Of a DNA stretch of 64,000 nucleotides, positions 40,763-54,282 are shown one piece after another. Where the stretch lies: the NCBI GenBank assembly GCA_021801345.1, contig JAJYYA010000005.1, positions 1 through 64,000 of the forward strand, given 5' to 3'. The notes beneath the pieces were generated by a model. The model was not told where the DNA came from. It did no database searches and saw only the letters and a program-made list of their open reading frames with translations. The translations under genes and the position numbers were made by a program. Positions within the stretch are counted from its first letter, which is position 1, and the number at the start of each line of letters is the position of its first letter. Source of the DNA: Nitrospirota bacterium. Lineage in GTDB: Bacteria; Nitrospirota; Leptospirillia; Leptospirillales; Leptospirillaceae.

Positions 40763-42019
40763 ATGATACCTCGTGACATCACCCAAGAGCTTCTGGAATC
40801 AGCCCGGGAATATCCGGTCGTGACCATTTTGGGACCCCGCCAGTCGGGAAAAACCACGCTGGCCCGATCCACCTTTCCCGACAAGCCTTACTACTCCCTC
40901 GAAGACCCGGACATTCGGCTTTTTGCCGAATCCGATCCTCGCGGATTCCTTTCGGAAACCTGGGAGGAGGGGGCCATCCTTGATGAAATCCAAAGGCTTC
41001 CTCTCCTGCTTTCCTATTTGCAGGGCATGGTCGACCAAGATCCCCGGCAGGGACGATTCATTCTCACGGGAAGCCATCAGCCCGCCCTCTCCGAAAAGAT
41101 TTCCCAATCCCTGGCCGGACGAACCGCCGTGCTGAGCCTCTGGCCCCTGTCGATCAACGAACTCCGTCTCAGGGGACCCATTCCCTCTCCCTTTGATTTG
41201 GTCGTGAAAGGTTTTTTTCCAGGCCTGCACGAAAGAGGTCTCGACCCCAGGCGATTTTTCAACGGCTATCTTCAGACTTATGTGGAGAGAGATCTCCGCT
41301 CCATGGTGGGGGTCAGAGATCTTTCTGCCTTCCAGAAATTTCTCGTTCTGATGGCCGGAAGGATCGGCCAACTGACCAATCACTCCTCTTTGTCCAACGA
41401 TGTCGGGGTGTCGGCCCCGACGGTCAGGAACTGGCTTTCCGTCCTCAGAGCCTCCTATGTGCTTTTCGAACTGCCTCCCTTCTTCGAGAACATCGGAAAA
41501 CGCCTGGTCAAGTCTTCCAAGTTCTATTTCGTCGACACGGGACTGGCGGCTTTTCTTCTTGGGCTGCATACCGAAGAGCAGGTCCGGAGGGACCCTCTCC
41601 GGGGGAGCCTCTATGAAAATCTTCTCGTCGGCGATATCTTGAAGTGTGCTCAAAATCGGGGGAGAAAGCCCGATTTTTTCTTTTACCGAGATTCCCGGGG
41701 AAGCGAAGTCGATCTTCTGGTTCCCGAGAGCGGCCGCCTCTATCCCGTCGAAATCAAATCGGCCGAAACATTCACTCGGGACTTCATGCGCGGACTCGAA
41801 AACTTCCGCTCCCTCGCCATTTCTCGAAGCGCGCCGGGGCTTGTCTTTTACAATGGTCCAGAAGACTTCGTCTCGGAAGGACTTCGGGTCCTCAACCCCT
41901 TCCGTCAGAAGACCGACCTCTTTACCCTTGTGACCACCCCTCCCCTTAAGCCCGCACACGGCACAACGGCGGAACCCTCCCCCTCGAAACGCGAGCAGGA
42001 GGGAGGGGAGTGCCTTTAG
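40763..42019 (+). CDS. DUF4143 AAA ATPase with PD-(D/E)XK-like C-terminus
   Basis: The 418-aa protein has Walker A LGPRQSGKTTLAR (about 28), Walker B GAILDEIQRLP (about 75), sensor FILTGSHQPAL and SLAGRTAVLSLWPLSI. It then has the DUF4143 region GYLQTYVERDLR and KFYFVDTGLAAFLLG, ending in SEVDLLV--PVEIKSAE, a D-ExK nuclease-like site. The family is abundant in accessory DNA and its biology is unclear. No ribosome binding site is present. The last third is duplicated at 43.7 kb. Confidence 0.9.
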   Translation: MIPRDITQELLESAREYPVVTILGPRQSGKTTLARSTFPDKPYYSLEDPDIRLFAESDPRGFLSETWEEGAILDEIQRLPLLLSYLQGMVDQDPRQGRFILTGSHQPALSEKISQSLAGRTAVLSLWPLSINELRLRGPIPSPFDLVVKGFFPGLHERGLDPRRFFNGYLQTYVERDLRSMVGVRDLSAFQKFLVLMAGRIGQLTNHSSLSNDVGVSAPTVRNWLSVLRASYVLFELPPFFENIGKRLVKSSKFYFVDTGLAAFLLGLHTEEQVRRDPLRGSLYENLLVGDILKCAQNRGRKPDFFFYRDSRGSEVDLLVPESGRLYPVEIKSAETFTRDFMRGLENFRSLAISRSAPGLVFYNGPEDFVSEGLRVLNPFRQKTDLFTLVTTPPLKPAHGTTAEPSPSKREQEGGECL

Positions 42020-49962: not shown

Positions 49963-50003
49963 ATGTTGACGAATGTAAGTTTTAAACTTATAATCGTCAA
50001 CAT
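49963..50003 (+). promoter_or_regulatory. Consensus leaderless promoter inside an inverted repeat
   Basis: TTGACG (49966-49971) and perfect TATAAT (49989-49994) are 17 nt apart, and the ATG follows after 7 nt. The arms ATGTTGACGA (49963-49972) and TCGTCAACAT (49994-50003) form a perfect 10-bp inverted repeat spanning from the -35 box to the start codon. A repressor bound here would block both transcription and the start. Confidence 0.72.
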
Positions 50004-51201
50004 GTATATTCCGAGAGACCTCACCTCTCGACTCCTGGAGAGCCGATCTTTGGTCCAGATTCTGACCGGACCCCGTCAATGCGGAAAAAGCACCCTCCTT
50101 TCGCATCTTTCCGATTCTTCCTATACGGAAATCACATTCGATGATTTGCAAATGCGAACTTTGGCCAATCGCGATCCGGGCTTGTTTCTCGATCAGTTCA
50201 AACCGCCCCTTCTGCTCGACGAGGTGCAGTATGTCCCCAACCTGTTTCCGGAAATCAAAGCTCGCGTCGACCGGTTGAAGCGGGAGCGACTCGAGAAAAA
50301 CCGCGAGCTGTCGCCAATCTTTCGAATGACGGGCTCCAACCAGATCCTCATGGATCGAAACATCAAGGAGAGCCTGGCCGGACGGGCCAGTTACTTCCAT
50401 CTGAATACTCTCTCCGTCCATGAAATCAGGTCGAATCTCCCGGAGATCGAACTCTCTGACATCCTGTTTCGGGGAGGCTGGCCGGAACTCTCTCTCGACT
50501 TTGGAGTGTCCCCCGTCTCGTATCTGAACGACTACATCCGCAGCTATCTCGAAAAAGAGATTGTTTTAAGTGCCGGCATACAGAAGCAGGAGGCCTTCAA
50601 TACCGTTCTTGGTCTTCTGGCGGCAAGAACGGGCATGTTGCTGGACTATGCCAATATTGCCCGGGACAGCGGAATTCAGGGGGTGACGGTCAAGGAATGG
50701 ATCGGTGTTCTGGAGAGGACGGACTTGGCGTATTGCCTTGCTCCTTACTCGAGCAATCTGAACAAGCGACTGACGAGAACGCCGAAATTTTACTTACTGG
50801 ATACGGGTTTGGCGGTGAGACTGCAGGGATGGAGGGAGCGGATGCCCCTTCTGACGAGCCCGCAGGCCGGCGCATTGTTCGAAACGCTGGTCCTCTCCGA
50901 AATCGTCAAGTTCCTCCGGAACTACGGCAAAGACTGGCAGGTCTATTTATGGAGGACCAAAGAGGGGGAGGAAATCGACTTTCTCATCCTCACAGCCTCG
51001 GAGGAGGTCATTGCGCTCGATGCCAAAATGAGCCTCCAGTCGACCCCGCCTGTCAGCATCCCCCCACAATTCAAAAAGCTTTTCCCAAAGACGCAAGAGA
51101 TCGTTCTGGTGACCTTTGGCGGAAGTCGCATTCAGCTTTCGAGGGAGTGCCGGGCTGTTCCCTTGGCAGAGCTGCATGACTTTCTGCTGAGCTTTCACTA
51201 A
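50002..51201 (+). CDS. DUF4143 AAA ATPase, second copy type
   Basis: The 399-aa protein begins MYIPRDLTSRLLESRSLVQI. It has Walker A TGPRQCGKSTLL (about 22), Walker B LLLDEVQYVPN (about 72), sensor FRMTGSNQILM and SLAGRASYFHLNTLSV. The DUF4143 block YIRSYLEKEIV and KFYLLDTGLAVRLQG follow. The nuclease-like site is EEIDFLI---IALDAK, with D-x-K instead of E-x-K. No ribosome site precedes the ATG. It is a distant paralogue of the 40763 product. Confidence 0.9.
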   Translation: MYIPRDLTSRLLESRSLVQILTGPRQCGKSTLLSHLSDSSYTEITFDDLQMRTLANRDPGLFLDQFKPPLLLDEVQYVPNLFPEIKARVDRLKRERLEKNRELSPIFRMTGSNQILMDRNIKESLAGRASYFHLNTLSVHEIRSNLPEIELSDILFRGGWPELSLDFGVSPVSYLNDYIRSYLEKEIVLSAGIQKQEAFNTVLGLLAARTGMLLDYANIARDSGIQGVTVKEWIGVLERTDLAYCLAPYSSNLNKRLTRTPKFYLLDTGLAVRLQGWRERMPLLTSPQAGALFETLVLSEIVKFLRNYGKDWQVYLWRTKEGEEIDFLILTASEEVIALDAKMSLQSTPPVSIPPQFKKLFPKTQEIVLVTFGGSRIQLSRECRAVPLAELHDFLLSFH

Positions 51202-51275: not shown

Positions 51276-51662
51276 CTAGCCCAGAGAGCTCCAGGGAATG
51301 GCCACGATCCTGTCGTGAAGCCGCCGGACTTCCGTTCCGTCGTAGACGAGGATGCCGGCAACCGTTTCGGGATAGTCCTCCATGAAATCCTGAAGTCCCT
51401 CCGTGTCGGAATAGCGAGGGGATTGCGTGAATTTGGCCTCCACGGCAATGAGGCTTCGGCCCCGCTCGAGGACGAAGTCCACCTCTTTGCCCGTCACCGT
51501 CCTGTAGTGGAAGATGCGGGGTTTGGGGAGCATGAGTCCTGTCAGGATTTGAAGATGCAGAAAGACCAGCGATTCGAAGAAGGCCCCGGCCTCTCTCGAG
51601 TCGCTGAGAGTCCGGGCGTCGTGGATGCCGGAAAGATGGACGGCAAGTGCCGGATCCACCCA
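51276..51662 (-). pseudogene. DUF4143 ATPase, C-terminal half (split by the IscB element)
   Basis: This half encodes WVDPALAVHLSGIHDARTL through the nuclease-like KEVDFVLERGRSLIAVEAK to the stop. Its first codon (TGG, 51662-51660) directly abuts the left end of the IscB element. Joined to 54246-53380 it completes a 417-aa protein in frame, reading KSPKIH-WVDPALAV as the family expects. An internal GTG could yield a 127-aa fragment, but function is unlikely. Confidence 0.9.
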
Positions 51663-52018
51663 GTCAACTACCCCGTCCTGAAGGACGGAGCTTGAGAATC
51701 CAGACGCCCGAGGCCATGGGAGCCGATCGGTTCACCGACTCCCTAAAAGAAGGGCAGGATTTTTAAAGCCAGGTTGACCAGGGAAAGCGGTATCCAACCC
51801 GCTCCGTTACGAACAGGTCGTTAAGACCCACCCCGGGATGCTTCCTCAGTCCCGGGCTCTGGAAGGCCCGGATCATGCTGGCGAAAGGCAAAGCGCCGAA
51901 GGTTCGGATCGCCGTCGAAAGACGGGAGCCGGTTCGTGACATTCCCGAGGGGAGACGCTTCGCAAGAAGCGCGTTACGGTCGTAAGACCAGTGCAACGTA
52001 AGTTTTTAAGGAGCAACC
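51663..52018 (+). ncRNA. Predicted IscB omegaRNA
   Basis: IscB proteins use a structured RNA encoded upstream of the ORF, with the guide taken from the DNA beyond the left end. The 356 bp before iscB have no ORF but many stems. These include CCGTCC-TGAA-GGACGG (51673-51688), a CCCGGGA/TCCCGGG pair near 51825-51850 and CGCTTC-GCAA-GAAGCG (51956-51971). The guide would be the flank ending at 51662 (ATCCACCCA). Exact ends are not determined. Confidence 0.72.
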
Positions 52019-53350
52019 ATGCAGGTTTTCGTATTGGACAAGAGAAAAAAGCCACTGATGCCCTGCCACCCGGCACGGGCAAGGGAGTTGCTAAAAAGGG
52101 GTCAGGCGGTGGTCCACAAGATCGCCCCCTTCACCATCCGGTTAAAGGAGCGAGTCGGGGGAGAGGTTCAGCCGATCCGGATCAAACTCGATCCGGGATC
52201 AAAAACCACCGGCATCGCTCTGGTCCGAGAAGAAGTGATGGGAACGGAAACCACCGCCCATGTCCTGTTCTTGGCGGAACTCGATCACCGGGGAGACCGG
52301 ATCCGGGAGCGTCTCACCGCCCGGAGAGCGTTTCGGAGACGCAGACGGGGCAACCTCCGCCATCGTCCACCCCGGTTCGACAATCGGACAAGGCCCGAGG
52401 GGTGGCTCCCCCCGTCCCTCCAACACCGGGTCGATACGACAGGGGCCTGGGTGAATCGGCTCCGGAGGCTGGCTCCGGTCTCCGGTATTTCCATGGAACT
52501 TGTCCGGTTCGACCTGCAGAAGAGGGAAAATCCGGAGATCTCCGGAGTTGAGTATCAGCAAGGGACCCTGGCCGGGTATGAGGTCCGGGAGTATTTGTTG
52601 GAGAAATGGAACCGGACCTGTGCCTACTGCGGGAAGACGGACGTGCCTCTTGAGATCGATCACATCCACCCCCGCTCCAAGGGAGGGACGGATCGGGTCT
52701 CCAATCTGACACTGGCGTGTCACGTCTGCAACCAGAAGAAGGGAGACGAGGACATGACCGAGTTTCTGATCAAGAAGCCGGACGTTCTGAAGAAGATCCT
52801 CGTTCAAGCCAAGACCCCGCTCAAAGACGCCTCCGCCGTGAACTCCACCCGATGGGCGTTGTATGAGGCGTTGAAGCGGACGGGTCTCCCGGTCGAGACG
52901 GGATCCGGAGGACGGACGAAGTACAACCGGACCCGGTTCGGACTTCCGAAGACGCACAGCCTTGATGCGGCCTGTGTCGGGAAGGTCGATCAAGTCACGG
53001 ACGGGGACCGGCGGGTCCTGTCGATCAAGGCCACGGGTCGGGGGAGCTATCAGAGAACCCGGCTTGATGCCTTTGGCTTCCCCCGAGGGTTCCTGACCCG
53101 AACGAAGAGTCACTTCGGGTTCATGACCGGAGACCTGGTGAAGGCCACGGTCACGAAGGGAAAGAAGATTGGGGTCTATGTGGGCCGGGTCGCCGTCCGG
53201 GCCTCCGGAAGCTTCAATATCCAGAGACCCGGATCGGTGGTTCAGGGTCTTTCTTACAAAGACTGTCGATGTCTCCAACGGGGAGACGGGTACGGGTATG
53301 CGGTCATATCACACCTAACAGAAAGGAGAGCGCATTCCTCCCCGGCATAA
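52019..53350 (+). CDS. iscB: IscB RNA-guided nuclease (RuvC and HNH)
   Basis: IscB is the Cas9-related nuclease of ISC transposons. The 443-aa protein opens with the PLMP segment VFVLDKRKKPLMPCHPARAR. It then shows RuvC-I IKLDPGSKTTGIAL (Asp58), an Arg-rich bridge helix (about 96-123), RuvC-II Glu160 (SMELVRF), an HNH domain with C201-C204, DH214-215, N229 and C234-C237, and RuvC-III THSLDAA (His313, Asp316). All catalytic residues are present, so it should be active. AAGGAG precedes the ATG. Confidence 0.95.
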   Translation: MQVFVLDKRKKPLMPCHPARARELLKRGQAVVHKIAPFTIRLKERVGGEVQPIRIKLDPGSKTTGIALVREEVMGTETTAHVLFLAELDHRGDRIRERLTARRAFRRRRRGNLRHRPPRFDNRTRPEGWLPPSLQHRVDTTGAWVNRLRRLAPVSGISMELVRFDLQKRENPEISGVEYQQGTLAGYEVREYLLEKWNRTCAYCGKTDVPLEIDHIHPRSKGGTDRVSNLTLACHVCNQKKGDEDMTEFLIKKPDVLKKILVQAKTPLKDASAVNSTRWALYEALKRTGLPVETGSGGRTKYNRTRFGLPKTHSLDAACVGKVDQVTDGDRRVLSIKATGRGSYQRTRLDAFGFPRGFLTRTKSHFGFMTGDLVKATVTKGKKIGVYVGRVAVRASGSFNIQRPGSVVQGLSYKDCRCLQRGDGYGYAVISHLTERRAHSSPA

Positions 53351-53379
53351 ATGCCGAGGTTGAAAATCGCGCGCAGTTG

Positions 53380-54246
53380 ATGAATCTTGGGAGACTTGAT
53401 CAGGCGTTTTGTCCTGTTGCGCGAAAAAGCCGGGACCCGGGCAAGAAGCGAAGAGACTTCGAGAAGATTCATGTACCGGTGGACGGTCGCCTGGCTGACC
53501 CCGGTGTCTCGGGCAATCTCGGTTTGGTTGGCTATGTTTGCGCTTCGGAGAGCCAAGGCCGCCATAACGCGCCTGAAGTCCGGAAGGGATTCTACGGAGG
53601 AAATTTGCCGGAGATCCCTTTCGAGATAGGTGGCGATATACCCCTCCCACCACCCTTGAATGCCCGAAGGTCGAGAGAGGGTGTCAAGAGGAGGGAAGAA
53701 GCCACGGACCATGAGTTCTCCGGTCGATTCCTCCGGCCCGTCAATGGGCCCGTCTTCCGGGATCTTTCCGGCAAGGAGTGTGTCGAGGAGGCCGGAGGGA
53801 GAGCACCGGGCCCATTCCCCCCAGGACATGGGATAGAGTGTGGCGTGAACAGCCCGGCCCGCCAGACTCTCCGTGGCGTGCTGCATGAGGAGGGGGTTGG
53901 CCGAACCGGAAAGCACAAATCGGATCTTCCGCCTGTGCCGGTCCACAGTCTCCTTGACGGCAGACAGAAGCGAGGGGGACTTCTGGACTTCATCCAAGAC
54001 CAGGCGGTCCGTTCCGGCCCAGAGGGCTTCCGGATCGCGGTTCGCCTGCGTGAGGGTGTCGAAATTGTCCAATGTCAGATAGCGCCATCGGGAAAAGGGC
54101 TCTTCTTCTGTGAGAAGGGTGCTTTTTCCGACCTGGCGGGCGCCGGAGAGAATGACGACCGGATGATCTTCCACGGACTGGCGCAGAAGGGGGGCCATCC
54201 ATCTCTTTCTGTAATCTGATTCATCTTCTGAATGATTATTATTCAT
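53380..54246 (-). pseudogene. DUF4143 ATPase, N-terminal half (split by the IscB element)
   Basis: The 289 codons carry Walker A LSGARQVGKSTLL (about 30), Walker B RLVLDEVQKSPS (about 80), FVLSGSANPLLM, SLAGRAVHATLYPMSW and YIATYLERDLRQI, ending at KSPKIH. The native frame then runs into the element and continues to 53254, adding about 42 foreign residues. The truncated product keeps the ATPase core but loses the nuclease-like end. An earlier ATG at 54264 lies upstream of the predicted transcription start. Confidence 0.9.
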
Positions 54247-54282
54247 GGCTTGAATTATAATCATTCAGAAGCCGAGCATCAA
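54225..54282 (-). promoter_or_regulatory. Leaderless promoter with 15-bp inverted repeat
   Basis: On the minus strand TTGATG (54282-54277) and perfect TATAAT (54259-54254) are 17 nt apart, and the ATG at 54246 follows after 7 nt. CTTCTGAATGATTAT (54225-54239) and its exact inverse (54257-54271) flank the -10 box and start codon with a 17-nt loop. This is a strong operator candidate, partly within the coding sequence. Confidence 0.75.

What the first reader, a model, noticed from the sequence alone, without database searches (positions are those of the whole stretch)
51276..54282. IscB element precisely interrupts a DUF4143 ATPase gene
Removing 51663-53379 joins 289 and 128 codons in frame into a 417-aa ATPase, with the expected KSPKIH-WVDPALA junction and no extra base. 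The element carries terminal hairpins and an intact nuclease. IS200/IS605-like elements can excise without a scar, so the ATPase could be switched back on when a transposase is supplied, while IscB cleaving the empty site would favour retention. This gives a defined natural donor/empty-site pair.
Basis: partly seen in the sequence, partly recalled or inferred. Interest (0 to 1): 0.82.

Follow-up and report, generated by a model that had tools for sequence, protein, structure and literature searches.

The report
IscB transposon splitting an ATPase gene
A small mobile element that carries an RNA-guided DNA cutter (IscB, a relative of Cas9) has split an ATPase gene with single-base precision, and its sister copies in many bacteria mostly sit exactly in front of gene start codons, with ends that look built to let the host gene still be translated.

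Summary
51663-53379 is a 1,717-bp IscB element: the Rfam HEARO/omega-RNA model starts exactly at 51663 (99.4 bits), IscB hits its NCBIfam equivalog (468 bits), and removing the element rejoins an AAA_14/DUF4143 ATPase. An uninterrupted homologue in a congener (73% nt, 75% aa) aligns without gaps across the junction, and true empty sites of sister copies at accB and two other genes show the same scarless ends. The switch interpretation is only partly supported: the genome (97% complete) has no detectable Y1 transposase, the copies are diverged, and this copy has altered terminal bases and a frameshifted IscB tail. Retention by cutting the empty site fits the anatomy (left flank as guide, ATGA as TAM) but was not tested. 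The wider result is more interesting. In this genus and in Cyanobacteria, Proteobacteria and others, the target ATGA is usually the start codon of the downstream gene (16/26 versus 4.5% background; accB confirmed by empty sites). The right ends carry either a Shine-Dalgarno sequence or an IscB frame whose stop overlaps that start codon (ATGA or TGATG). The window copy, antisense inside a gene, is the exception.

The parts
51276..51662 (-). C-terminal fragment of the DUF4143 ATPase (128 codons from the junction, plus stop)
   Evidence: DUF4143 positions 83-159; in-frame with N-terminal fragment
53380..54264 (-). N-terminal fragment of the ATPase (AAA_14 plus first half of DUF4143), 295 codons from ATG 54264
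   Evidence: AAA_14 8e-25, DUF4143 1-81; 75% aa identity to uninterrupted L030
51663..53379 (+). complete IscB (ISC-type, IS200/IS605 superfamily) element, 1717 bp, no TnpA
   Evidence: left end by RF02033, both ends by sister copies and by empty sites of sister copies
51663..51960 (+). HEARO / omega-RNA scaffold, full model 1-211
   Evidence: RF02033, 99.4 bits, E 3.2e-19
52019..53350 (+). iscB, 443 aa; RuvC/HNH motifs LDPG, MELV, EIDH, KTHSLDA present; last ~11 residues frameshifted relative to sister copies
   Evidence: NF040563 468.5 bits; PDB IscB matches; tail comparison; motif positions
51673..51690 (.). left-end hairpin (CGTCC..GGACG stem)
   Evidence: DNA fold
53340..53359 (.). right-end hairpin (CGGCAT..ATGCCG stem) with an outer GCGC stem
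   Evidence: DNA fold, z -2.8 on the minus strand
51647..51662 (+). left flank that would become the guide of the omega-RNA (GTGCCGGATCCACCCA)
   Evidence: position directly 5' of the omega-RNA scaffold; guide role inferred from known IscB biology
53380..53383 (+). ATGA: target / target-adjacent motif side of the insertion (TTCAT on the other strand)
   Evidence: ATGA follows the right end in all 23 genus right ends collected; the relative IsrB cuts ATGA-TAM targets (PMC9581776)

Best explanation
51663-53379 is a non-autonomous IscB element of the IS200/IS605 type. A Y1 transposase supplied in trans inserted it as single strand next to TTCAT (ATGA on the iscB strand), here antisense inside a DUF4143 ATPase gene, splitting it without loss or duplication (shown: anatomy and junction; inferred: transposase action). 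Transcription through the left end would add about 16 nt of ATPase sequence as guide to the omega-RNA. IscB would then cut the reconstituted site (guide match + ATGA TAM) but not the filled one, favouring retention (inferred). At family level the ATGA target is usually the start codon of a host gene: the element lies between leader and start codon in the sense direction, takes its guide from the host transcript, and its right end lets the host gene be translated, either through a Shine-Dalgarno sequence in the right end (cyanobacterial copies) or through overlap of the IscB stop codon with the host start codon (docking shown statistically and by empty sites; translational function inferred). 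The window copy departs from that rule, so it simply disrupts its gene.
For: Ends and identity. No intact copy of the site in the own genome. 14 omega-RNA loci and many IscB copies in the genome. No Y1 transposase in own genome, present in 8 of 14 congeners. Scarless empty sites of a sister copy at the accB start codon in four close congeners, and at a COX1-family gene and moeB in a congener with 98-99% aa identity. Start-codon docking: 16/26 versus 42/939 background ATGA, p ~9e-16; own genus 7/11 versus 10%, p 3e-5 at one of several cut-offs; still significant against non-genic ATGA only, p 4e-4 and 1e-7. IscB stop at +1, -2 or -5 of the target ATGA: 18 of 32 in the IscB frame versus 5 of 64 in the other two frames. 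ATGA/TGATG overlaps are known coupling signals (PMC6728339). Shine-Dalgarno right ends such as AAGGAGGTAGAAAG|ATGA.
Against: The window copy shows neither the start-codon position nor the stop/start overlap (its stop is at -32). The own-genus docking p-value depends on cut-offs (0.13 to 5e-7). Several lineages have neither an SD nor an overlap (Allochromatium type), and omega-RNA-only minis have no iscB to couple to. RNA-guided cleavage, transposition and translation were not tested.
Confidence: 0.85

Rival explanations
1. The element is a fixed relic: it cannot move in this host and the ATPase is a dead pseudogene, not a switch. (Compatible with the identity given above; a rival only to the mobility part.)
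For: No Y1 transposase in a 97%-complete genome; no close sister copy, 72-78% over full length; altered right-end bases and an extra base; frameshifted IscB tail.
Against: Both ATPase fragments remain open and gapless against a 75%-identical homologue, so the insertion is probably not very old; congeners hold Y1 transposases, so mobilisation in trans after gene transfer is possible; IscB catalytic motifs are intact.
Confidence: 0.5
2. Start-codon docking is only the residue of selection: elements land at random ATGA sites and only harmless insertions survive; the ends have no translational role.
For: Disruptive insertions are removed by selection; ATGA is intrinsically common at starts and at stop/start overlaps.
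Against: Enrichment remains against non-genic ATGA only (p 4e-4 and 1e-7). A survivor in front of accB, or of TsaD- or ProC-like genes, still needs translation from that ATG behind the element. SD sequences and stop/start overlaps recur at the ends.
Confidence: 0.35
3. A reversible genetic switch: the ATPase is regulated by programmed excision and insertion of the element.
For: Scarless junction and intact fragments.
Against: No transposase in the genome, no empty copy of the site in the assembly, and the IscB logic opposes loss.
Confidence: 0.05
4. Assembly artefact or chance adjacency of unrelated ORFs.
For: A single fragmented assembly; no reads available.
Against: Ends coincide to the base with the independently defined family ends and with gapless homology on both sides.
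Confidence: 0.02

Closest known systems
ISC / IscB-omega-RNA (OMEGA) elements of the IS200/IS605 superfamily, HEARO RNA RF02033
   Same: IscB with RRXRR, HNH and RuvC motifs; full-length HEARO RNA upstream; hairpin ends; insertion directly 5' of ATGA without target duplication; no own transposase, as is common for IscB (PMC9755519).
   Different: This copy has right-end TTG instead of AGG and a frameshifted IscB tail, and lies antisense inside a gene.
TnpB-carrying IS605 elements with nuclease-driven retention / gene drive (PMC11870625)
   Same: Guide copied from the insertion flank; nuclease attacks the empty site.
   Different: IscB/Cas9-type nuclease; guide on the 5' side and TAM on the 3' side; no transposase in the element; retention not tested here.
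Translationally coupled gene pairs with ATGA / TGATG overlaps (PMC6728339)
   Same: In sister copies the IscB stop overlaps the host start codon in the same two arrangements.
   Different: Here the overlap would be created by transposition, the target supplying part of the stop codon.
MITE-like derivatives of IS200/IS605 elements
   Same: About 430-bp copies with both ends and no protein gene (L011, L013, L015).
   Different: They keep a full omega-RNA, so they could be guide-RNA-only elements served by IscB in trans.

Membership tests
IscB-omega-RNA (ISC) element | IscB protein with RRXRR/PLMP, split RuvC and HNH | tested here: met
IscB-omega-RNA (ISC) element | HEARO/omega-RNA directly upstream, starting at the element's left end | tested here: met
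   RF02033 1-211/211 at 51663-51960
IscB-omega-RNA (ISC) element | precise insertion 5' of ATGA/GTGA without target duplication | tested here: met
IscB-omega-RNA (ISC) element | hairpins near both ends | tested here: met
IscB-omega-RNA (ISC) element | RNA-guided cleavage of guide + TAM targets | not testable with these tools
   needs biochemistry; relative IsrB is active on ATGA TAM (PMC9581776)
autonomous IS200/IS605 element | Y1 transposase TnpA in the element | tested here: not met
   none in element or genome; so non-autonomous
AAA_14/DUF4143 ATPase | AAA_14 followed by full DUF4143 in one ORF once the element is removed | tested here: met
start-codon-docked IscB copy | target ATGA is the start codon of a downstream gene | tested here: not met
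   window copy: antisense inside the ATPase; met by many sister copies
ATGA/TGATG translational coupling | upstream stop overlaps downstream start | tested here: not met
   window copy stop at -32; sister copies +1 or -5

The most novel reading that the evidence does not exclude
IscB transposons are start-codon specialists: their target/TAM ATGA is used as the host start codon. By landing between a leader and its ATG they borrow the host promoter and leader as guide RNA, and they restore translation of the host gene with a right end that carries a ribosome-binding site, or with an iscB reading frame whose stop codon is completed by the target so that it overlaps the host start. This lets them sit in front of essential genes at little cost.
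Probability: 0.5. Interest if true: 0.8.

Novelty: new member of a known kind. Interest (0 to 1): 0.55.

Why it matters
The window copy gives clean, independently verified ends of an IscB element and a homologous empty allele, useful for testing RNA-guided retention. The family pattern matters more: if IscB elements really dock on start codons and keep the host gene translated, this would explain why ATGA is the target, how the guide gets transcribed without a promoter in the element, and how a transposon can occupy sites in front of essential genes such as accB.

Tried and rejected
Looked for the mobilising transposase by searching the loci of congener Y1 genes for the element's end motifs: no full match of that kind. 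Searched the own genome for an intact copy of the site: only the interrupted one. A promoter scan across the element and its left side found no sigma-70-like site. Considered that an AAGGAG upstream of the right-end hairpin serves as a ribosome-binding site brought near by the hairpin in this genus; not pursued, because it may instead belong to the transposase recognition structure. Key papers on HEARO target sites (Weinberg 2009, Kapitonov 2015, Altae-Tran 2021, Meers 2023) are not held, so whether start-codon docking was noted before could not be checked; that HEARO precedes ATGA/GTGA is from memory. Some minus-strand homologues in the junction alignment were read on the wrong strand and are ignored; the correctly read ones show no extra residues at the junction.

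Full report
Observation. Taking out 51663-53379 rejoins minus-strand codons into a 423-aa ORF reading KSPKIH|WVDPALA. The N-terminal piece matches AAA_14 and DUF4143 1-81, the C-terminal piece DUF4143 83-159. The closest uninterrupted homologue, in congener G008 (L030), is 75% identical over the N-terminal part and aligns without a gap over the whole gene; blastn places the two window segments back to back. Other homologues read on the correct strand show no residues at the junction. In G008 no dnaE was found beside the gene, so this is a homologous empty allele, not the ancestral locus.

Identity of the insert. Rfam HEARO (RF02033) covers 51663-51960, its first position on the proposed left end. 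IscB 52019-53350 scores 468.5 bits to the NCBIfam IscB equivalog and matches solved IscB structures; the RuvC and HNH motifs are present. Both ends fold into hairpins. Y1 transposase is absent from the element and from the genome, while controls and 8 of 14 congeners are positive.

Copies in the genome. There are 28 DNA matches, 21 IscB matches and 14 omega-RNA loci. Sister copies begin GTCAAC and end directly before ATGA. Three copies (L011, L013, L015) are about 430 bp and hold a full omega-RNA and both ends but no iscB. The window copy is no recent duplicate: the nearest full-length copies are about 78% identical; the first 340 bases are 87% identical to mini L011. Its right end reads CAGTTG|ATGA where most read CAGAGG|ATGA or similar, with one extra base, and the IscB tail is frameshifted by a 2-base insertion.

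Empty sites of sister copies. The mini at accB (L015) lies exactly between the leader ..CCGGAGGACACTCTTTC and ATGACAAACGAG; four close congeners have the uninterrupted sequence. The copy at L006 lies exactly at the start codon of a COX1-family gene, and a separate copy occupies the same start in congener G001. At moeB (L007) a congener with 98-99% aa identity shows the insertion two codons inside the original start, leaving the next ATG (ATGA) as the new start.

Family pattern. With left ends from Rfam and right ends from sister copies, flanks of 26 insertions in Cyanobacteria and Proteobacteria were joined: 16 have ATGA as the start of an ORF of at least 100 codons with at most 30 open codons upstream, against 42 of 939 other ATGA sites in the same loci (p ~9e-16). 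In the genus it is 7 of 11 against 10% (p 3e-5) at the looser cut-off needed for GC-rich DNA and 3 of 11 (p 0.03) at the strict one. Compared only with start and intergenic ATGA in the window (15% starts) the p-values are 4e-4 and 1e-7. Downstream genes recognised by Pfam include accB, an aminotransferase, ArsD and a ThiF-family gene; TsaD-, ProC-, HisB-, UbiA-, AccA- and PgsA-like starts were recognised by reading the N-terminus only.

Right ends. In Moorena and relatives the right end finishes with a Shine-Dalgarno sequence at usual spacing, e.g. AAGGAGGTAGAAAG|ATGA. In this genus and in several Proteobacteria, an actinomycete and a Ktedonobacter the iscB frame runs through the right end and stops at the target: +1 (A|TGA), -2 (TG|A) or -5. 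This holds for 18 of 32 copies in the IscB frame and 5 of 64 in the other frames (L002 is an undercount). ATGA and TGATG overlaps are established coupling signals (PMC6728339). The translational role is inferred, and copies within one lineage are not independent.

Mechanism for the window copy. The left flank GTGCCGGATCCACCCA would be the guide and ATGA the TAM; the related IsrB enzyme cuts ATGA-TAM targets (PMC9581776). The own genome has no other copy of the joined site. Nuclease-aided retention is established for TnpB (PMC11870625) and inferred here. Excision would need a transposase in trans and ends that still work.

Verdict. The finding is real and its ends are right. As a single locus it is a new member of a known kind with an untested switch story. 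The start-codon docking of the family is the point worth following; whether it has been described before could not be checked because the key papers are not held.

Noticed in passing
L002, L005, L006, L007, L010, L013, L015, L021, L052, L063, L064, L070, L076, L078 (own genus); L090-L140 (other phyla): IscB element right ends abut an ATGA that is the start codon of the downstream gene far more often than chance; confirmed by empty sites at accB and a COX1-family gene.
   Followed up: yes
L002, L005-L008, L051, L052, L063; L090, L094, L096, L104, L137, L143, L183: The IscB reading frame runs through the right end and its stop codon is completed by the target, overlapping the host start codon (ATGA or TGATG).
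   Followed up: partly
L101, L103, L117, L121, L123, L126, L131 (cyanobacteria): The element right end finishes with a Shine-Dalgarno sequence correctly spaced from the target ATG.
   Followed up: partly
L011:1394-1837, L013:1501-1944, L015:1501-1929 (approximate): About 430-bp elements with both ends and a full omega-RNA but no iscB; one sits directly in front of accB.
   Followed up: partly
L006 and L070: Two congeners carry an element at the same start codon of orthologous COX1-family genes while close relatives lack it: recurrent insertion or patchy loss.
   Followed up: no
window 49963-51201 (+) and 40787-41524 (+): Further DUF4143 ATPase genes in the window, one convergent with the split gene; the genome has about 11 matches to this family.
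   Followed up: no
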